Below are positions 33,879 through 48,379 of a stretch of 48,379 bases of DNA, one piece after another. The stretch comes from Caldilineaceae bacterium (GTDB taxonomy: Bacteria; Chloroflexota; Anaerolineae; Caldilineales; Caldilineaceae). Each line of letters begins with the position of its first letter. Position 1 is the first letter of the stretch. The stretch covers positions 1 to 48,379 of the forward strand of contig JAHDWH010000015.1 of the NCBI GenBank assembly GCA_023384455.1, in the 5' to 3' direction. The notes under the pieces are model-generated. The model saw only the letters and a program-made list of their open reading frames with translations, was not told where the DNA came from and did not search any database. The position numbers and the translations under genes were made by a program.

Positions 33879-38948
<5,070 letters not shown>

Positions 38949-40563: not shown

Positions 40564-41817
40564 ATGAGAAAAATTGCTGTTGTCATTGGGGTTCTGTTGG
40601 TATTGGTTCTGCTTACCGCTTGCGCTGGCGTTGCAGGCCCTATTGGCCCTGCGGGTCCAGTCGGCGCGCCCGGCCCCCAGGGGCCTGAAGGGGTGGCTGG
40701 CCCGCCCGGTCCAGTGGGCGCGCCCGGCCCGCAAGGAGCCGTCGGACCCGCGGGTGTCGCCTTTGCTTCCCCCGTCTACGTCGGCTCGGACGCCTGCCAG
40801 GAGTGCCACGAGGAACTCTACGCCTCCTATCGGCAGACGGGACACCCCTACAAACTGAACAAAGTGGTGGACGGAAAAGCCCCCACCTATCCCTTCTCCG
40901 AAGTGCCCAATCCCCCGGAAGGCTACGCCTGGGATGACATTTCCTACGTCATCGGCGGCTATGGCTGGAAGGCCCGCTTTATCGACCAGCAGGGCTTTAT
41001 CATCACCGGCGGTATCAGCGACACCACCCAATACAATCTCTACAACAAAAACTTGAAGATGGGCGAGAATTGGGTCGCCTATCACGCCGGGGAAGAAAAG
41101 CCCTACGACTGCGGTTCCTGTCACACCACCGGCTACCGGCCCGAAGGCCACCAGGACGGTCTGCCGGGGTTGATGGGTACGTGGGTGGAGGACGGCATCG
41201 GCTGTGAGGAGTGTCACGGGCCGGGCGAACATCACGTAAACGATCCCTATCTGGTGGAAATGCCCATCAACCGGGACTCGGAAACGTGTGGCGCGTGCCA
41301 CCGCCGGGGTGACGTGACGGAAATCGACGCCAAAGATGGCTTCATCCAGCATCACGAGCAGTACGAGGAGTTGTTCGAGTCGAAAAAGCGGGTGATGGAC
41401 TGTGTGGATTGCCACAACCCCCACCAGACGGTCAAGTATGCGGCCAAGGGCGAGGGCATCAAGACCGAGTGTGAAAATTGCCACTTTGAGAATGAAGAGT
41501 ACCAGAAGATCAACGACCGCCGCCACGCCACCTGCATCGACTGTCATATGCCGATGGTGACAAAGAGCGCGCTGGGCGATGCGACCCGCTTCACCGGTGA
41601 CGTACGCACCCACCTGATGGCGATCAATCCGTTGGCGAAATCCCAGTTCGACAAAGAGGGCACATTCTCCCAGCCCTATCTGGCCCTGGACTTTGCCTGT
41701 CGCGGCTGTCACTACGACGGCGGCAAGGGCGCTGAACTGACCGATGAGGAGTTGCAGGCCGCGGCTCTCAACTTCCACGACCGGGAGCTGTCTGGCAGCC
41801 TGAACAAGAAACGGTAG
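40564..41817 (+). CDS. octaheme c-type cytochrome lipoprotein with collagen-like stalk
   Basis: A 417-residue protein from ATG 40564, preceded by GGAGGAGG. A lipoprotein signal ends in the lipobox LTAC (Cys20), so the mature protein is lipid-anchored on the outer face of the membrane. Residues 22-66 are 15 uninterrupted Gly-X-Y triplets ([15 protein letters not shown] ...), a collagen-like stalk. Eight CxxCH motifs follow: CQECH, CGSCH, CEECH, CGACH, CVDCH, CENCH, CIDCH, CRGCH. The stretch around [11 protein letters not shown] ... CGACHRRG resembles cytochrome c554-type modules and has a homologue in the 13-heme protein. It is probably a surface electron carrier or reductase. The collagen stalk implies a trimer holding about 24 hemes away from the membrane. 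Confidence 0.9.
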
Positions 41818-42056
41818 TGGTTGAGCAGGCCAGACCGACCAGTGAGTGCTGATTGAGTAGCCGAGTCTGCGAGGCGTATCGAAATCAAGCGAACGGGTCG
41901 ACGAAAAAATTCTTCCTACCCGCTGGGTTTCACTTCGATACGCTTCGCACTCAGCACAAGCGATACGGCGGGAAAAAGTCCTAGCCTACCCTTCGACAGG
42001 CTCAGGACACCGCTCAACCGGCGCTGGTCGCATAGGGTAACTGACGGATCGGGTGA
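41818..42056. repeat. intra-operon inverted repeats between cytochrome genes
   Basis: gcgaggcgtatcgaa (41869-41883) and ttcgatacgcttcgc (41934-41948) pair with one mismatch around a loop of about 50 bases. Further on lies a copy of ccttcgacaggctcaggaca (41990-42009). The hairpin could attenuate or stabilise the operon mRNA between the lipoprotein gene and the next cytochrome gene, or simply be a dispersed repeat. No coding sequence is seen. Confidence 0.6.
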
Positions 42057-43928
42057 ATGATGGCAAGAAACGACTTCCGTAAAATACGAATGGTCGTCTG
42101 GGCAGGGCTGCTGCTGATCGGGCTGGCCTTTCTGGGCGCGGCAGATGTTTCGACCGTCTACGCGGACCCGCTCCCACCCGACGGCGCGTGTGTGGGCTGC
42201 CATCAGGACAACCAGCGCACGCTGACCCTGCCTTCCGGCGAGGAACTGCCCCTGCTGGCCCTGCCAGAAGAGTTGGCCGCGTCGCCCCACCAGCGCAGCG
42301 GCCAACAGCCGGTAAGCTGCACCAGTTGCCATCAGGGGCCAACCCGCTATCGCTATCCCCACCCGGCCACACCAGCCCGGAGTCTGGATGAATATAGCGC
42401 ATTGGCGGCACAAAATTGTCAGGAGTGTCACATCTATCACAATCCCCTGCACCGCAACGCAGAGGAGGAAGAGTCAGTAACGAATGCAGCGACGGGCGAT
42501 CTGCCGAATTGCGTCGATTGTCACGGCAGCCACGCCATCGCTATTACCGATAAGATTGCCGAAACGATGGCCCCCAACTGTATCGCCTGCCACACAGATC
42601 AGACGAGCGGCTGGGCGGAAGAACTGATCGCCCCCCGGCCCGGTCTGGGGGAAGGCGCACAGGGCTATGTGGGCAGTCGCCGCTGTCTGGGCTGTCACAC
42701 GGACAACTATCTGGGCTGGCGGGATACCCTGCACGCCAAAACGATTCACAACGCATCGGTCACGCCGGGGGCGATTCTGGCCGATTTCGAGCAGCCGGAG
42801 ATGGAATTGCCCTTTGGCCTGGCGGATGTGAAGTTTGTGATCGGCCAGAAGTGGCAGCAGCGCTTTATTACCGAAACGGAAGAAGGCGATCTGCTGGTGT
42901 TGCCCGGCCAGTGGAACATCGCCACGAATGAATGGGTGCTAGACGATCACCGGGCCGAGGGGGAGACGGTCAATTGGCGGACGCAATGTAGCGGCTGTCA
43001 CGTAACCGGGCTGGAGAGCGGGGACTGGGGCTTCCAGGAATTTGGCATTGGCTGTGAGGATTGCCACGGGCCGGGCCAAGCACACGCGGACGCGCCGGAA
43101 GAGGCGGCGATCTTCAGCCAGCCGGACGATCAGGTGTGCGGAGCCTGCCACAGCCGGGGCACATCGCCGGAGGGCCATCCCTTCCCGGCCAGCTACCGGC
43201 CAGGGGAGACGCTGACCGATCACTTCAGCTTTACCGCGGACGCAACGACCCACTGGCCCGACGGCAGCGCCAAAATTCATAACCAACAGTACACGGATTG
43301 GATACAGAGCGACAAAATGCAGGGATCGGATGGGTTGACCTGCTCCACCTGTCACGCGGCCCACGGCAACGGGGCCGGGCCGTCCCAGACCGTTCTGCCT
43401 ACGAATGAGCTGTGCAGCGGCTGTCACGCGGAGAAGACGACCCTGGCCCGCCACATCCCCTATCACCAACAGGCCATCACCAAACGGGACTTTACCTGTA
43501 ACAATTGCCATATGCCGCTGATGGCGACTTCGGCGGTGGAGTATGACATCCACAACCACACATTTAAGCAGCCCAATCCCCAGGGCACGCTGGAGCACGG
43601 CGGGCTGGAGTTCCAGCCCAACGCCTGTAACCAATGCCACACGGACCGGTCGGAGACGGCAGAGTGGGCGGTGGAGACAATCGATTGGGCGCTGGCGAAC
43701 TATGCGATTGTGCGCACGGAATATATCTTTGCGCCAGGACCGACACCCACGCCGCCTCCGGTGCCCACCCCCCTGCCTTCGGTGGGGGAACGCCACGAAG
43801 TCAGCGCCTATGTGGATTTTGCCTGGGTGCGGCCCATCTTTTTCTCTGGGCTGGGGCTGGTCGGGCTGATTCTATTGTTGTTTGCCGGTCGCTGGTTGTG
43901 GTCCAGGAGGGCGTCTGATGCTCGATAG
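42057..43928 (+). CDS. 13-heme membrane-anchored c-type cytochrome
   Basis: A 623-residue protein. A Sec signal peptide (to about VSTVYA) is followed by 13 CxxCH motifs (CVGCH, CTSCH, CQECH, CVDCH, CIACH, CLGCH, CSGCH, CEDCH, CGACH, CSTCH, CSGCH, CNNCH, CNQCH). A Pro/Thr linker (PGPTPTPPPVPTP) comes next, then a C-terminal transmembrane helix (FFSGLGLVGLILLLFAGRWLW) with a basic tail. The N-terminal tetraheme unit (SGEELPLL ... SPH ... CTSCH ... YRYPH) recurs in the 15-heme protein. The centre (FVIGQKWQQRFI ... GIGCEDCHGPG ... CGACHSRG) matches the octaheme lipoprotein. It probably carries electrons on the outer face of the membrane. Its stop overlaps the next gene by 11 bp. Confidence 0.92.
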   Translation: MMARNDFRKIRMVVWAGLLLIGLAFLGAADVSTVYADPLPPDGACVGCHQDNQRTLTLPSGEELPLLALPEELAASPHQRSGQQPVSCTSCHQGPTRYRYPHPATPARSLDEYSALAAQNCQECHIYHNPLHRNAEEEESVTNAATGDLPNCVDCHGSHAIAITDKIAETMAPNCIACHTDQTSGWAEELIAPRPGLGEGAQGYVGSRRCLGCHTDNYLGWRDTLHAKTIHNASVTPGAILADFEQPEMELPFGLADVKFVIGQKWQQRFITETEEGDLLVLPGQWNIATNEWVLDDHRAEGETVNWRTQCSGCHVTGLESGDWGFQEFGIGCEDCHGPGQAHADAPEEAAIFSQPDDQVCGACHSRGTSPEGHPFPASYRPGETLTDHFSFTADATTHWPDGSAKIHNQQYTDWIQSDKMQGSDGLTCSTCHAAHGNGAGPSQTVLPTNELCSGCHAEKTTLARHIPYHQQAITKRDFTCNNCHMPLMATSAVEYDIHNHTFKQPNPQGTLEHGGLEFQPNACNQCHTDRSETAEWAVETIDWALANYAIVRTEYIFAPGPTPTPPPVPTPLPSVGERHEVSAYVDFAWVRPIFFSGLGLVGLILLLFAGRWLWSRRASDAR

Positions 43929-45594
43929 AGTCAATCGGTTTATCACCCCCGAGCGTTCTTCGCCCCTGTGGATGCGGCTGATGCCCTATGCAACGGTCGT
44001 CTTTGCCGGGCTGGTTGTCTTTGCCCTGGCCGGGGCTGGCTGGGAATATACCAACCGCTCCCAATTTTGTGGCACCACCTGCCACACAATGCCGCCCCAG
44101 TACGAGGCGTGGCAGGTCTCCGTACATTCGAGAGTCAATTGCGTGGACTGTCACATCGGGCGGGATTATATCGCCACCCAATTCACCCGCAAAGCCCAGG
44201 ACATCAGCCACGTTGTCGAGTTTGTCGGGGCCAGCTACGAAGTGCCCATCTATTCCAAAAAGCTGCGCCCGGCCTCCCAGGCCTGTGAGCGCTGCCACAG
44301 CCCGGAGAAGTTCTCCGACGACAGCCTGCGCGAGTTCAAGCGCTACGACGCTGAGAAGAACAATGAGCTTTCGGTGATGTATATGGCCTTCAAAACTGGC
44401 GGCGGCACCCAGCGGGAAGGCCAGGGCAAGGGCATTCACTGGCACATCGAAAATCAGGTGGACTACATTTCCACGGATAATCCCCATCTGGAGCAAGAGA
44501 TTCCCTGGGTGCGGGTGACCTATGCGGAGGACGGTCGAGCGGAGGTCTTCACAGACAGCGAAGTCGATCTGCCAGCGGATTTTGCCGAGCAGAATCAGGT
44601 GAAGATCAAAACGATGGACTGTATGACCTGTCACAACCGGGATTCCCATCCCTTTGCCACGCCGGACGACGCCCTGGACGACGCCCTGGCCCGGGGGATT
44701 ATCTCGCCGGATATTCCCTATATCAAGAAATATGCCGTGGCGGTGATGGACCGGGGCTACCCGAATATGGAGGAGGCGCGCATAGCCATTTTGGGGCTGA
44801 AGCAATTCTACGCGGTCAATTGGCCGGATTATACCGCCCGCTACGAAACGACCGTTTCGGACGCAGTGGACCAACTGATGGCGATCTATGAGCGGATGTT
44901 CTATCCCGATATGGATGTGACGTGGGAGACCCACCCCAACAATGTGGGCCACGACGACTCGGCGGGCTGCTTCCGTTGTCACGACGGCAAACATCTGAAC
45001 GAAGCCCAGGAGAGCATCCGCATCGAGTGCAATCTCTGCCATACGATTCCTGTGGAGAGCAGACCGGATGGAACATTGCCCACCCTGGCAATCGCCAATA
45101 CTTTTGAGCCGGAATCCCACATCGACAGCAATTGGATCGGGCGTCACCGCTTCGAGTTCGACGGCACCTGCAAAGGCTGTCACGACATCTCCAATCCGGG
45201 CGGCAGCGACAATGCGGGTTTCTGCGCCAATGCCGCCTGCCACGCCACGGAATGGACGTATGCGGGTCTGGACGCATCCCGCATTATTGAACTGACAAAC
45301 ATCCTGGCCGATTCGCTGCCCACCTACCCGGAGAGCGCGCTCACCTGGGAGGCGCTGGTGGGGCCGATTTTGCAATCCCGCTGCGCGGCCTGTCACGGGG
45401 GCACAGCCGGGCTATATCTGGAAAGTTACGACAAATTGATGGCTGGCGGCAATTTGGGACCGGCATTTGTGCCGGGTGCAGCCGCCGAAAGTCTTCTGGT
45501 TGAGTATCAACGCAACGGTCATCCCAACAGCCTTGCCCCGAAGGAACTGGAGTGGATTATTCAATGGATCGACAGTGGAGCGCCCGAATTTTAA
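43918..45594 (+). CDS. NapC/NirT-like multiheme cytochrome with C-terminal cytochrome c domain
   Basis: A 558-residue protein from ATG 43918. One N-terminal transmembrane anchor (VVFAGLVVFALAGAGWEY) is followed by FCGTTCHTMPPQYEAWQVSVHSRVNCVDCHIG, the NapC/NirT/NrfH-type quinol dehydrogenase start. There are seven canonical CxxCH motifs (CVDCH, CERCH, CMTCH, CFRCH, CNLCH, CKGCH, CAACH) plus CGTTCH (CX3CH) and CANAACH (CX4CH), so up to nine hemes. The last 80 residues, around SRCAACHGGTAGLYLESYDKLMAGG, form a cytochrome c-like domain of the kind found in Planctomycetes-type proteins. It probably takes electrons from menaquinol and passes them to the neighbouring multihemes. It overlaps both neighbours. 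Confidence 0.9.
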   Translation: MLDRVNRFITPERSSPLWMRLMPYATVVFAGLVVFALAGAGWEYTNRSQFCGTTCHTMPPQYEAWQVSVHSRVNCVDCHIGRDYIATQFTRKAQDISHVVEFVGASYEVPIYSKKLRPASQACERCHSPEKFSDDSLREFKRYDAEKNNELSVMYMAFKTGGGTQREGQGKGIHWHIENQVDYISTDNPHLEQEIPWVRVTYAEDGRAEVFTDSEVDLPADFAEQNQVKIKTMDCMTCHNRDSHPFATPDDALDDALARGIISPDIPYIKKYAVAVMDRGYPNMEEARIAILGLKQFYAVNWPDYTARYETTVSDAVDQLMAIYERMFYPDMDVTWETHPNNVGHDDSAGCFRCHDGKHLNEAQESIRIECNLCHTIPVESRPDGTLPTLAIANTFEPESHIDSNWIGRHRFEFDGTCKGCHDISNPGGSDNAGFCANAACHATEWTYAGLDASRIIELTNILADSLPTYPESALTWEALVGPILQSRCAACHGGTAGLYLESYDKLMAGGNLGPAFVPGAAAESLLVEYQRNGHPNSLAPKELEWIIQWIDSGAPEF

Positions 45595-47315
45595 CTTCGA
45601 TTTCTAGTCTGCGAATTGCGAATTGCGAATTGCGAATTGCGGTCCGTCGTCCGCGAACTGCCGTCTTCTTTTCTGTACTCATTGTGGCTGTCCTTTGTCT
45701 CTTGGCCCTCTGGCTGGCATTGCCGACGACAGTTCTTGCCCAATCGCCGTCGCCGGATTCGCCCTGCGCCGGCTGTCACGGGGACAACGAACACAGCCTG
45801 CCTTTGCCATCTGGCGAGCTTTTGCCGTTGGATGTAAACCTGGAAGCGCTGGTGGCTTCTGTCCACGGCGGCGGCGCAGCGGAGCCGGTCAATTGCATCG
45901 ACTGCCATCGCAACGACACGAACTACCGCTATCCCCATCTGCCCAATCCGGCGCTGACCCTGGAAGAGTACAGACAGCGGGTGGGCCAGAGTTGCCAGAG
46001 CTGTCACACGCCCTTGCAACAGCACAACCCCGGCCATCTGAACGCGCTGGATAACCCGAACCTGCCCGGCTGCGTGGATTGCCACGGCCAGGGCCATTCG
46101 GTGACACCTGCGGATGAGTTGGCCGCGGACCCGGTGGCGACCTGCCAAAGCTGCCATCAGACGTACGACGATCCCAAAGTTGGGCAGGTACACGAAGAAT
46201 TGACCGCCAACTTTAGCTCAGAGCAGACATGCCAGACCTGCCACAACGACAAGCCCATCTACCCGGCGGATGTGCGCTGCCGCAACTGCCATCTGCTGTT
46301 GGATGGCAACATTGAATTGGCTTCCGGTGAGCTTGTCTCTCTGCACGTAGACCCGGCTACGATTGCCGGTTCGGTCCACGGCTCGTCGATGGTGGAACAT
46401 CGCTATTCACCCCTGCGCTGCACCAATTGTCACCGGGACGAGGAGCGCTACGCCTTTCCCCACACGCCGCTGACTGTGGAGGATGCGCGAGGATTGACGC
46501 TGGAAATGGACGATCTCTGCCAGGAGTGTCACGCGGATATTGCCGCGCTGGAACACGACGGCATCCACGAGGCGGCCAGAGAAAATGGCGAGCTGGCCGC
46601 GGCTTCTTGCGCCGACTGTCACGGCAGCCACAATATCCAATCCCCCAGCGAACCCCGGGAGCGGGTTTCGGAGACCTGTGGGAGCTGCCATTCGACGATC
46701 AACGAGCAGTATGTGGGTAGTGTCCACGGCGCGGCCCTGGTGGGCGAACAGAACCCGGATGTGCCGGTCTGCACCGACTGTCACGGCGTACACAACATCG
46801 CGCCGCCCCAGACGGCCCAGTTTCGGGTGGAATCGCCCAATCTGTGCGCCAGTTGCCACGCGAACGAAACGCTGATGGCGAAGTATGACATTTCTACAGC
46901 GGTCTTTGATACATATGTGGCGGATTTCCACGGCACGACGGTGGCGCTCTTTGAGAAGCAGGCCCCCTGGCAGGAGACGAACAAAGCCGTCTGCTACGAC
47001 TGTCACGGCATCCACAACATTCTACCCGCCAACGACGAACATTCTCAGGTGATTAAAGAGAATCTGCTGGTCACCTGCCAACAGTGTCACCCGGACGCCA
47101 ATGCGAATTTCCCGGCCTCCTGGACCAGCCATTTCGAGCCATCGCCAGAACACAACCCACTGGTCTATTACATCAATCTTTTCTATGCAATTTTGATACC
47201 CGGAGTAGTGGGCGGCTTTGCCCTGCTCATCGGCTCGGACGTTTACCGGCGCACGGGTGAGAAACTGCGGAGAAGACGGGTAGCCAAGCCCCAGAAAGAG
47301 GAGGCGGAGGAATGA
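45564..47315 (+). CDS. 15-heme membrane-anchored c-type cytochrome
   Basis: A 583-residue protein counted from ATG 45564, overlapping the previous gene by 31 bp; a GTG at 45552 is an alternative. The signal peptide has an unusually long n-region because a gaattgc microsatellite (45611-45641) is translated there (SLRIANCELRIAVR). The h-region (FFSVLIVAVLCLLALWLALP) ends at VLA-QS. Fifteen CxxCH motifs follow: CAGCH, CIDCH, CQSCH, CVDCH, CQSCH, CQTCH, CRNCH, CTNCH, CQECH, CADCH, CGSCH, CTDCH, CASCH, CYDCH, CQQCH. A C-terminal helix (NLFYAILIPGVVGGFALLIG) and a basic tail complete it. A tetraheme unit is repeated twice. Its stop overlaps the cytochrome b start as ATGA. Confidence 0.92.
   Translation: MDRQWSARILTSISSLRIANCELRIAVRRPRTAVFFSVLIVAVLCLLALWLALPTTVLAQSPSPDSPCAGCHGDNEHSLPLPSGELLPLDVNLEALVASVHGGGAAEPVNCIDCHRNDTNYRYPHLPNPALTLEEYRQRVGQSCQSCHTPLQQHNPGHLNALDNPNLPGCVDCHGQGHSVTPADELAADPVATCQSCHQTYDDPKVGQVHEELTANFSSEQTCQTCHNDKPIYPADVRCRNCHLLLDGNIELASGELVSLHVDPATIAGSVHGSSMVEHRYSPLRCTNCHRDEERYAFPHTPLTVEDARGLTLEMDDLCQECHADIAALEHDGIHEAARENGELAAASCADCHGSHNIQSPSEPRERVSETCGSCHSTINEQYVGSVHGAALVGEQNPDVPVCTDCHGVHNIAPPQTAQFRVESPNLCASCHANETLMAKYDISTAVFDTYVADFHGTTVALFEKQAPWQETNKAVCYDCHGIHNILPANDEHSQVIKENLLVTCQQCHPDANANFPASWTSHFEPSPEHNPLVYYINLFYAILIPGVVGGFALLIGSDVYRRTGEKLRRRRVAKPQKEEAEE
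45611..45641. repeat. (gcgaatt)n microsatellite at the 5' end of the 15-heme gene
   Basis: Four tandem gcgaatt units plus a partial one, in the signal-peptide n-region of the coding sequence. The same unit occurs three times at 21588-21609 in the TrmH-family gene. Confidence 0.75.
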
Positions 47316-48154
47316 GTAAAGGGAGCGAACGCTACCCCCGTTTTGACACAGGACAGCGCATCGAGCACGGGCTGCTGGTCCTCAGTTTTACGATCCTGTC
47401 CATCACCGGCCTGCCCCAGAAATATCCCGACACGGGTTGGGGAGAGGGGATGATCTGGCTGATGGGGGGGATCGAACTGACCCGTTTCATCCATCACACC
47501 GCGGCGATTGTGCTGATCGTCGGCTCCATCTATCACCTGGCCAGTGTGGGCTATCGGCTGGTGGTGAAACGGGTGCAGATGTCGATGATGCCGGGCTGGA
47601 AGGATGTGGTGGATGTGGTGCAGACACTGGGCCACAATTTCGGTCTGATCAAAGAAGCCCCGAAGATGGGGCGCTACACTTTTGGCGAAAAGGTGGAATA
47701 TTGGGCGGTGGTCTGGGGCACAGTCATTATGATTCTGACCGGCTTTATGCTCTGGAATCCGATTGCCACCAGCCGTCTGCTGCCCGGCGAGTTTATCCCC
47801 GCGGCCAAAGCGGCCCACGGGGGCGAGGCTCTGCTGGCCGTGCTCTCGATTGTCACTTGGCATCTCTACAACGTTCATGTGAAAAGTTTCAACAAAAGTA
47901 TGTTCAGCGGGTATCTCAGCCGCCACGAGATGGAGGAGGAACACCCGCTTGAATTGGCCGACCGGGAGAAAGGCGAGCAAAAAACGATTGCACCGGCGCT
48001 CCTGCGTCAGCGGCGGCGGCTCTATCTCCCGGTGGCTGTACTCTTTTCTCTGGTACTGCTGATCAGCGTCTATTTCTTTGTCACCTTCGAGGCCACGGCC
48101 ATTACGACTGTACCCCGACAGACGATGGAGATATTCGCGCCGGCGAACCGGTGA
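47312..48154 (+). CDS. b-type cytochrome membrane subunit (cytochrome b561/FdnI-like)
   Basis: A 280-residue integral membrane protein whose ATG overlaps the 15-heme gene stop (ATGA). Four central helices carry well-placed histidines: His19 (RIEHGLLVLSFTILSITGL), His61/62 and His75 (FIHHTAAIVLIVGSIYHLASVGY), and His169, His184 and His189 (AHGGEALLAVLSIVTWHLYNVHVK), enough for two b hemes as in formate dehydrogenase gamma or Ni/Fe-hydrogenase cytochrome b. A fifth C-terminal helix (LYLPVAVLFSLVLLISVYFFVTF) follows a basic stretch. It probably exchanges electrons with the menaquinone pool and feeds or drains the multiheme cytochromes encoded upstream. It is the last gene of the operon. Confidence 0.88.
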   Translation: MSKGSERYPRFDTGQRIEHGLLVLSFTILSITGLPQKYPDTGWGEGMIWLMGGIELTRFIHHTAAIVLIVGSIYHLASVGYRLVVKRVQMSMMPGWKDVVDVVQTLGHNFGLIKEAPKMGRYTFGEKVEYWAVVWGTVIMILTGFMLWNPIATSRLLPGEFIPAAKAAHGGEALLAVLSIVTWHLYNVHVKSFNKSMFSGYLSRHEMEEEHPLELADREKGEQKTIAPALLRQRRRLYLPVAVLFSLVLLISVYFFVTFEATAITTVPRQTMEIFAPANR

Positions 48155-48214
48155 GACTATTGTGTATGGCCGTATTGTGTAGGTAAGTTCCTCGTGCAAC
48201 GAGTTACGTCACGG

Positions 48215-48379
48215 GGCTGAAAAATGTAGGTCGGACTGTTAGTCCGACAGGCCTGCACCGTCGCTGGTCGGACTAACAGTCCGACGTACGAATGGCTATT
48301 TTCGGGGCAGGCTGAAAAATGTAGGTCGGACTGTTAGTCCGACAGGCCTGCAACGTCGCTGGTCGGACTAACAGTCCGA
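48215..48379. repeat. tandem nested palindromic repeat (95-bp period), cut by the window end
   Basis: Two copies start at 48215 and 48310 with ggctgaaaaatgtaggtcgg. Each holds gtcggactgttagtccgac, itself a palindrome with 8-bp arms, and further on its exact reverse complement gtcggactaacagtccgac, giving a hairpin of hairpins of about 56 bp. The copies differ by only one or two bases (cacc/caac). It resembles REP/BIME elements mobilised by RAYT (TnpA-REP) proteins. It lies 60 bp past the cytochrome b stop and could also act as a transcript end. Confidence 0.8.

What the first reader, a model, noticed from the sequence alone, without database searches (positions are those of the whole stretch)
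40564..48154. Five-gene multiheme cytochrome operon that looks like a membrane-to-surface electron conduit
Five same-strand genes, four of them overlapping, encode 8-, 13-, 9- and 15-heme proteins plus a b-type cytochrome: about 45 c-heme motifs. Every multiheme protein is membrane-anchored (lipid, C-terminal helix or N-terminal helix). There is no beta-barrel porin or recognisable catalytic subunit, unlike Mtr-type conduits of diderm bacteria. The combination fits a conduit for a cell without an outer membrane. The terminal donor or acceptor (iron, nitrogen or sulfur compounds, partner cells) is not readable, so this may be an undescribed respiratory complex.
Basis: partly seen in the sequence, partly recalled or inferred. 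Interest (0 to 1): 0.88.

Follow-up and report, generated by a model that had tools for sequence, protein, structure and literature searches.

The report
Chloroflexota surface electron-export cytochrome operon
Five neighbouring genes in a single-membrane bacterium seem to build a heme-protein wire that takes electrons from the membrane and hands them over at the cell surface, combining parts that well-studied metal-breathing bacteria normally encode apart.

Summary
Five + strand genes at 40564-48154 carry 8, 13, 9 and 15 c-heme motifs (45) plus a b-type cytochrome. The order A-B-C-D-E recurs in six related loci, each followed by a decaheme gene X; the window's contig ends 225 bp after E and shows no X. 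C resembles the one-helix form of the ImcH quinol oxidases (CX3CH beside the membrane helix). D+E look like a split CbcL: a MtrA/DmsE-like nonaheme wire with a C-terminal helix, then an FdnI-type cytochrome b. A and B are relatives of OcwA, the surface terminal reductase of monoderm Thermincola; A sits on a lipid anchor plus a collagen-like stretch. Conserved-histidine counts suggest that D is an all-low-spin wire and that A and B each keep at least one open heme, so candidate terminal sites exist. No Omp85 or MtrB match was found in this genome. Best reading: quinol-fed extracellular electron transfer in a cell without an outer membrane; function untested. An ImcH homologue and split-CbcL pairs are already reported in monoderm Carboxydocella, so this is a new variant of a known kind.

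The parts
40564..41817 (+). Gene A: octaheme lipoprotein, OcwA-related
   Evidence: 8 CX2CH, conserved in 23 of 23 rows, 6 conserved extra His; PDB 6i5b E 7.6e-18
40627..40755 (+). Collagen-like Gly-X-Y segment of A (residues 22-64) just after the lipobox Cys (residue 20)
   Evidence: Pfam PF01391 30.2 bits, cut-off 27.2; 15 triplets; 19 of 23 rows (window included) have 8 or more
41831..42029 (.). Dispersed repeat between A and B
   Evidence: repeated across the genome; gap is 16 and 19 bp in L039 and L079; inverted repeat inside
42057..43928 (+). Gene B: 13-heme protein, N-terminal pentaheme + OcwA-like octaheme + Pro-rich linker + C-terminal helix
   Evidence: profile A4 hits 6i5b (OcwA) at 3.7e-52
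42633..43646 (+). OcwA-like octaheme region of B (about residues 193-530)
   Evidence: 8 hemes with 7 conserved extra His
43918..45594 (+). Gene C: 9-heme ImcH-like membrane-anchored cytochrome with NrfH/NapC-type N-terminus and PSCyt1-like C-terminal heme domain
   Evidence: ATG 43918 with upstream aggag
44068..44085 (+). CX3CH heme motif next to the membrane helix of C
   Evidence: 26 of 26 rows in A1; FCGxxCH in 79 of 80 C frames
45564..47315 (+). Gene D: 15-heme protein, six extra N-terminal hemes + MtrA/DmsE-like nonaheme core + C-terminal helix
   Evidence: A3 profile hits 6r2q chain A (Mtr complex) at 4.9e-13
46278..47132 (+). Nonaheme core of D
   Evidence: 9 hemes and 9 extra His conserved in 30 of 30 rows
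47312..48154 (+). Gene E: FdnI-type cytochrome b with an extra C-terminal helix; with D resembles a split CbcL
   Evidence: Pfam PF01292; A2 profile hits FdnI 1kqf at 2.9e-13; invariant His 19, 61, 75, 169, 184, 189, 211
48155..48379 (.). Contig end with two copies of a 70-nt repeat; in relatives the decaheme gene X follows E

Best explanation
A quinol-to-surface electron conduit of a monoderm Caldilineaceae-type Chloroflexota. Menaquinol is oxidised through two entry points: C (ImcH-like) and the D+E pair (split CbcL; quinol site and two b hemes in E, c-heme wire in D). Electrons run along bis-His hemes of C and D, perhaps through the decaheme X encoded next in relatives, to B and A. A and B are OcwA-related and act as terminal reductases facing outwards: B is held by a C-terminal helix and Pro-rich linker, A by a lipid and a collagen-like stretch that could lift its heme domain some 13 nm through the wall (inferred; about 0.29 nm per residue is recalled). 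Acceptor most likely Fe(III)/Mn(IV) minerals, humics, electrodes or partner cells (inferred). Shown: gene content, motifs, conservation, family resemblances, synteny, no Omp85/MtrB match. Inferred: electron direction, quinol oxidation, location, partner, the collagen rod.
For: Synteny A-B-C-D-E-X in six related loci. E has D directly upstream in 44 of 48 cases in 80 loci, 17 with the same 4-nt overlap; 3 of the 4 exceptions lie at the contig edge. The D-E pair also occurs outside the class: in 6 of 10 such regions with D at 120 bits or more, in 3 with a weaker 7-heme D-like gene, and in 1 the E gene lies at the contig edge. Pair distances of C, D and E correlate (Mantel r 0.62-0.77, 0 of 999 permutations; shared ancestry alone could give this). 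D core: 9 hemes and 9 extra His, all invariant. A and B match OcwA, which passages of PMC6703420 identify as the T. potens cell-surface terminal reductase, PDB 6I5B. A also passes the Pfam cut-off for MtrC/MtrF domains II/IV (43.4 against 30 bits). CX3CH beside the helix is given as an ImcH feature (PMC6295460, section 11 read). No Omp85 or MtrB match; c-heme assembly genes present. EET is measured in another Chloroflexota, Ardenticatena maritima (passages of PMC5808234).
Against: I saw no expression or biochemistry for any of these proteins. None of the five passes the NCBIfam cut-off of a named respiratory family. A. maritima has at most 7 heme motifs in a protein, so it does EET without this set. 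Only 4 of the 20 listed same-family genomes, this one included, hold a C homologue, so it is accessory. X is neither in the 225-bp tail nor found elsewhere in this genome. Anaerolineales with large multihemes were mostly planktonic, not on the anode, in a bioanode study (passages of PMC7399161). ImcH and CbcL sequences could not be obtained, so those resemblances rest on architecture. The B model failed (pLDDT 41) and the D model gave no PDB match below E 0.001.
Confidence: 0.6

Rival explanations
1. A wall-side reductase for a soluble acceptor: C and D+E feed quinol electrons to A and B, which reduce nitrite, hydroxylamine, sulfite or a similar small molecule at an open heme, with no mineral or partner involved.
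For: The octaheme cores of A and B belong with the OcwA/c554/MccA group; B lacks the counterpart of OcwA heme 5, the heme whose loss the OcwA paper proposes for MccA (my reading of the alignment). OcwA itself slowly reduces nitrite and turns over hydroxylamine. At least one heme in each lacks a conserved extra His.
Against: OcwA did not reduce sulfite. No CX2CK (NrfA) and no CX15-17CH (MccA) motif in A or B, and B has no Cys outside its 13 heme motifs. 45 hemes and a stalk-like A are more than such a reductase needs.
Confidence: 0.2
2. Electron uptake: the same chain runs inwards, from Fe(II), a cathode or a partner cell to quinone, feeding nitrate or oxygen respiration.
For: MtoC/MtrH homologues of CbcL occur in Fe(II) oxidisers and sequence did not tell the direction. 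A. maritima takes up cathodic electrons with nitrate. A NapA-like gene beside a tetraheme protein lies in this genome (my reading of the sequence). The C-terminal heme domain of C, and the like domain fused to E in relatives, weakly resemble FoxE, an Fe(II)-oxidising cytochrome by recall.
Against: ImcH has so far been implicated only in quinol oxidation; the FoxE matches are weak (1.5e-4, 7.3e-6), and E here lacks that extra domain.
Confidence: 0.15
3. A degenerating or strain-specific cytochrome stock without a defined chain.
For: Patchy in the family; a repeat lies between A and B that the two closest relatives lack room for; X not found.
Against: All five frames open, heme motifs conserved, order kept in six related loci.
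Confidence: 0.05

Closest known systems
Carboxydocella thermautotrophica ImcH homologue and two-gene Cbc-like clusters (PMC6085454, passages)
   Same: Monoderm (Clostridia); ImcH homologue clustered with two other multihemes; CbcL homologues as gene pairs, a b-type diheme membrane protein and a TM-anchored multiheme c protein facing outwards.
   Different: There the ImcH homologue and the Cbc pairs carry separate locus numbers in separate clusters; here all are in one operon with OcwA relatives. Homology not tested.
Thermincola ImdcA-PdcA-CwcA-OcwA pathway (PMC7911101, PMC6703420, passages)
   Same: Proposed porin-free path across a monoderm envelope ending in an OcwA-type protein.
   Different: Quinol side there is a decaheme ImdcA; OcwA is a nonaheme, and no collagen-like stretch is mentioned in the passages seen. 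A and B here have octaheme cores.
Geobacter sulfurreducens ImcH and CbcL (PMC6295460, passages and two sections)
   Same: CX3CH beside the membrane part (ImcH); nonaheme c part plus six-helix HydC/FdnI-type b part (CbcL).
   Different: ImcH has 3 helices (1 here); CbcL is one chain (two here); no porin conduit found here.
PDB 6qvm 'Multiheme cytochrome cf' (recalled as OmhA of Carboxydothermus ferrireducens; not confirmed)
   Same: Second-best solved relative of A and B; OmhA is a surface cytochrome of a Gram-positive Fe(III) reducer (passages of PMC7829351).
   Different: 11 hemes in OmhA; weaker match than OcwA.
ANME Mco: VhtC-type cytochrome b next to a 7-11 heme protein (PMC9012536, passages)
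   Same: Separate cytochrome b and multiheme c genes as a proposed carrier:cytochrome oxidoreductase, no outer membrane.
   Different: Archaeal, methanophenazine, hydrogenase-type b gene placed before the c gene; homology not tested.
Large multihemes of Anaerolineales from bioanode reactors (PMC7399161, passages)
   Same: Chloroflexota without porin-cytochrome complexes, EET suggested.
   Different: No operon with ImcH/CbcL-like parts in the passages seen.

Membership tests
[quoted passage not shown]
   26 of 26 rows, FCGxxCH in 79 of 80 C frames; definition
ImcH | 5-9 typical CX2CH motifs | tested here: met
   7 in C; over 80 C frames 6-9 in 76, 10 in 1, 12 in 3
ImcH | Three N-terminal membrane helices | tested here: not met
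   one helix, one in 78 of 80 frames by a hydropathy scan; the paper lists one-helix exceptions, Anaerolinea thermophila and Intrasporangium calvum. So ImcH-like, not ImcH in the strict sense
ImcH | Sequence relation to Geobacter ImcH | not testable with these tools
   no Geobacter sequence reached; nearest solved relative NrfH 2j7a
CbcL/MtrH/MtoC | c part with 3-23 CX2CH joined to a HydC/FdnI-type b part in one polypeptide | tested here: not met
   heme count and FdnI type fit, but two genes; no fused form seen in 80 + 40 + 20 loci, sets partly overlapping. Works like a split CbcL
CbcL/MtrH/MtoC | Conserved His that may bind the b hemes | tested here: met
   His 19, 61, 169, 184 invariant in 17 of 17 rows and aligned with His of FdnI; not compared with CbcL itself
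CbcL/MtrH/MtoC | Six membrane helices in total | tested here: inconclusive
   D's C-terminal helix and E's last helix are clear; of the four b561 helices two show in the hydropathy scan, the rest are inferred from FdnI
OcwA | Sequence relation over the heme domain | tested here: met
   B profile 3.7e-52, A 7.6e-18 to 6i5b
OcwA | Nine hemes with two open hemes (2 and 5) | tested here: not met
   octaheme cores; counterpart of OcwA heme 5 missing in B by my reading. OcwA-related, not OcwA
Mtr-type porin-cytochrome conduit | MtrB/PioB porin | tested here: not met
   no PF11854 match in the genome (weak control: 1 of 14 control genomes rang, none over the cut-off)
NrfA nitrite reductase | CX2CK catalytic heme / Pfam PF02335 over cut-off | tested here: not met
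   no CX2CK; 13.2 and 16.2 bits against 24.1
MccA sulfite reductase | CX15-17CH heme | tested here: not met
   absent from A and B; the motif as hallmark is recalled
Alternative complex III | NrfD-type and Fe-S/Mo-type subunits (recalled) | tested here: not met
   no such match in the five genes

The most novel reading that the evidence does not exclude
One operon codes a porin-free export line: two kinds of quinol gate (ImcH-like C and split-CbcL D+E), a 15-heme wire, and a terminal octaheme reductase that trimerises on a collagen triple helix about 13 nm long, a heme head on a collagen stalk that fixes its distance from the membrane. The one search made for it found 0 papers holding both 'collagen-like' and 'multiheme cytochrome' among 5.39 million; the spelling 'multi-heme' was not tried.
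Probability: 0.33. Interest if true: 0.8.

Novelty: new variant of a known kind. Interest (0 to 1): 0.62.

Why it matters
How cells with a single membrane and a wall export electrons is known from few isolates (my summary). This gene set gives the Anaerolineae, most of them uncultured, a concrete and testable candidate pathway. The 2018 survey of quinol oxidases counted one ImcH and no CbcL in Chloroflexi; split forms could escape a search for the fused protein (inference). If A is truly held on a collagen rod, it would be a new way to place a terminal reductase outside a wall.

Tried and rejected
Alternative complex III, NrfHA, MccA and Mtr conduits were considered and rejected on subunits or motifs.

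Fused CbcL was looked for in plasmids with E (92 records, 20 listed, 9 of these annotated as formate dehydrogenase subunits, the rest without annotation under the match; hits not opened), with D (one weak Emticicia match) and with C (none), and with E in 400 genomes of the phylum (20 regions looked at): none seen. Long frames carrying E in L163 and L164 are frame extensions, not fusions, by my reading.

Structure route: the B model failed (pLDDT 41) and was not used. The D model (pLDDT 71) gave Foldseek hits to HAO-type proteins (best E 0.014) and chain A of the Mtr complex (0.16), none under 0.001, so D being MtrA-like rests on sequence profiles; that chain A of 6r2q is MtrA is recalled (its sequence record is named otherwise). 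The DmsE family match of D is below its cut-off (61 against 192 bits), and the next best hits are NrfA and HAO types, so the link is to the wider multiheme group with the Mtr chain first.

X has no solved relative at E 0.01. Papers: searches gave no description of this operon in the listings and passages seen; listings were partial (20 of 37; 20 of 1,182; 20 of 170; 15 of 21). Preprints are not held and most subscription papers are missing. Passages of PMC11495043 name Chloroflexota among groups rich in signal-peptide multihemes in sludge; PMC11475568, PMC11650866, PMC9129911 and PMC6896113 added nothing decisive.

Counts and drops: one search's gene caller hid C in L039 because an extended D frame overlapped it; tblastn shows it. 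Some of the 40 regions and the 20 are the same contigs as some of the 80 (for example equal contig lengths of L071 and L153); the sets were not pooled.
Full report
What is there. Window 40564-48154 holds five + strand genes: A (417 aa, 8 CX2CH), B (623 aa, 13), C (558 aa from ATG 43918, read; 7 CX2CH plus CX3CH and CX4CH), D (about 583 aa, 15) and E (280 aa, cytochrome b). The sum of c motifs is 45. 2000 shuffles of A-D give at most 3 motifs, means 0.02-0.1, and no other stop-to-stop frame of the window holds two. In alignments (rows include the window) the motifs hardly vary: C 8 of 9 in 26 of 26 rows (ninth in 23, the other three being cut matches), D core 9 of 9 in 30 of 30, B 13 of 13 in 11 of 11, A 8 of 8 in 23 of 23. 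The six N-terminal hemes of D are kept in only 6 or 7 of the 30.

Surroundings. The window is the complete contig C60 of a 6.77-Mb, 448-contig genome, 98.6% complete and 6.1% contaminated. It ends 225 bp after E in two copies of a 70-nt repeat. The nearest named relatives are a MAG called Litorilinea aerophila (C 92%) and MAGs incl. Caldilineaceae; all 80 named loci kept bear titles of Chloroflexota lineages. Upstream on the other strand lie a membrane-protein-like gene (my reading; Pfam only below cut-off) and gyrB. Between A and B sits a repeat found across this genome; the gap there is 239 bp, against 16 and 19 bp in the two closest relatives L039 and L079 and up to about 140 bp in four more distant ones, so A probably belongs to the same unit by descent.

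Synteny. tblastn shows A-B-C-D-E in that order and on one strand in six related loci, L039, L040, L079, L082, L084 and L085, each followed by the decaheme X; in four of them (L039, L040, L084, L085) a diheme gene Y precedes A. X begins 110 bp after E in L079 and about 270-520 bp after E in the other five. The window's 225-bp tail shows no X and none was found elsewhere in this genome, so X is displaced, lost in the assembly break, or absent. Y is in this genome on another contig, 70% identical. Elsewhere the set breaks into modules: A-B-C without D-E, or D-E-C with or without X. In the 80 loci there are 48 E genes; 44 have D directly upstream, 17 of them with the 4-nt overlap seen here; three of the four others lie at the contig start, and L093 has the order D-C-E. 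C was found in 106 of 298 genomes of the class at E <= 1e-10, some only by its C-terminal domain, and in 4 of the 20 listed same-family genomes, this one included. E was found in 31 of 400 genomes of the phylum at E <= 1e-12, 10 of them outside the class; in the 10 regions fetched from those, D stands beside E at 120 bits or more in 6, a weaker 7-heme D-like gene in 3, and in L171 the contig ends. Distances of C, D and E over 42 loci plus the window correlate (Mantel r 0.765, 0.621, 0.663; 0 of 999 permutations reach them), which shared ancestry alone could also give.

C. Its N-terminus resembles NrfH (2j7a; E 1.9e-7 alone, 9.4e-10 as profile) and its C-terminus PSCyt1. The first heme is CX3CH right after a single helix; FCGxxCH is in 79 of 80 C frames. 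Zhong and Shi 2018 (PMC6295460; passages and sections 10 and 11) give this CX3CH beside the helices as a feature of ImcH, with 5-9 further CX2CH, and name a one-helix form in Anaerolinea thermophila. C is therefore ImcH-like; strict membership fails on helix number and could not be tested by sequence. Its best NCBIfam match, NrfH, is below the cut-off (60 against 134 bits).

D and E. E matches FdnI (1kqf, 2.9e-13 as profile), and seven His are invariant in 17 of 17 rows, four of them aligned with FdnI His. D's best NCBIfam match is the DmsE decaheme family, 1.1e-16 but below its cut-off (61 against 192 bits), and its profile's best solved relative is chain A of the Mtr complex, 6r2q, 4.9e-13, with NrfA and HAO types next. 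A nonaheme c part, then an FdnI-type b part with six helices in all is the layout given for CbcL; here it is two overlapping genes. No fused form was seen in 80 + 40 + 20 partly overlapping loci. Such a two-gene form is already described in the monoderm Carboxydocella thermautotrophica, together with an ImcH homologue (passages of PMC6085454), and ANME archaea have a comparable pair.

A and B. The B profile matches OcwA (6i5b) at 3.7e-52, A at 7.6e-18. The code 6I5B belongs to OcwA, the Thermincola potens surface terminal reductase with open hemes 2 and 5, by the passages seen of PMC6703420. In the alignment B lacks a counterpart of OcwA heme 5 (my reading); that paper proposes that MccA-type octahemes arose by loss of heme 5. 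A also passes the Pfam cut-offs of MtrC/MtrF domains II/IV, cytochrome c554 and NapC/NirT. B carries an N-terminal pentaheme part, and a Pro-rich linker before its C-terminal helix. A begins with a lipobox and 15 Gly-X-Y triplets (Pfam collagen above its cut-off; 19 of 23 rows have 8 or more).

Heme ligands. Counting His conserved outside the heme motifs in 85% or more of rows: D core 9 for 9 hemes; C 9 for 9; B 12 for 13 (5 for its N-terminal five, 7 for its OcwA-like eight, one of these in 10 of 11 rows); A 6 for 8 (one of them in 21 of 23); X 12 for 10. The simplest reading is that D is a bis-His wire, and that A and B hold at least one heme without a His sixth ligand, as expected for a site that meets a substrate. 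Counts cannot assign ligands; Met or Lys could fill a site.

Envelope and genome. No Omp85 (PF01103) match in the genome, while 7 of 14 control genomes ring; no MtrB (weak control). Heme-c assembly genes are present. The Cytochrome_C7 search rings on two further contigs: C253, with two multihemes beside NrfD-like and Fe-S genes (L200), and C172, with a tetraheme protein beside a NapA-like gene (L201; gene names are my reading). That search does not list A or C either, so other multihemes may be missed.

How it most likely works. Menaquinol is oxidised at E and C; electrons pass through D and C hemes, perhaps X, to B and A, which reduce something at or beyond the wall. The two quinol gates would let the cell serve acceptors of different potential, as ImcH and CbcL do in Geobacter; that is inference. 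Direction and acceptor are not readable. I put 0.6 on export to an extracellular acceptor, 0.2 on a soluble N or S oxide, 0.15 on uptake.

What is known and what is new. The five window proteins all have known relatives, so this is a new variant of a known kind. Not found in the listings and passages seen: this operon, an ImcH-like gene and a split CbcL in one operon, or a multiheme cytochrome with a collagen-like stretch. The 2018 survey listed one ImcH and no CbcL for Chloroflexi. Reports of large multihemes and possible EET in Anaerolineales exist (passages of PMC7399161, where those organisms were mostly planktonic), and EET is measured in A. maritima (passages of PMC5808234), whose heme proteins have at most 7 motifs.

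Noticed in passing
window 33879-38858, - strand: gyrB of 1659 aa interrupted by intein sequence: Pfam intein-splicing domain (two stretches) and LAGLIDADG over cut-off, Hint below it; I read it as two inteins.
   Followed up: partly
window 41831-42029: Repeat with a 21-nt inverted repeat, repeated across this genome, between A and B; the gap is 16 and 19 bp in the two closest relatives.
   Followed up: partly
window 48215-48379: Two 70-nt repeat copies (99% alike) with palindromic arms at the contig end, a possible cause of the assembly break.
   Followed up: partly
window 45610-45641: Short GCGAATT-type repeat at the start of D, also found on other contigs; the start codon of D is uncertain.
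   Followed up: no
L039 3239-5416, L082, L084, L085 and others (A6): Decaheme protein X of about 720 aa, which reads as a duplicated pentaheme, with 12 conserved extra His and no solved relative; a frequent neighbour of C, D and E.
   Followed up: partly
L064, L071 (same contig as L153), L074, L157: Proteins with 22-34 heme motifs directly beside the D-E-C module.
   Followed up: no
L091, L101, L135, L181: Tandem duplication of the D-E pair.
   Followed up: no
L199 7183-9147 (own genome C346): Diheme protein Y, upstream of A in four relatives, here lies beside a CcmE-like gene (my reading), which may link it to cytochrome c maturation.
   Followed up: no
L200 and L201 (own genome C253, C172): NrfD-like and Fe-S genes with two multihemes; NapA-like gene with a tetraheme lipoprotein-like protein (my reading): other possible electron outlets.
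   Followed up: no
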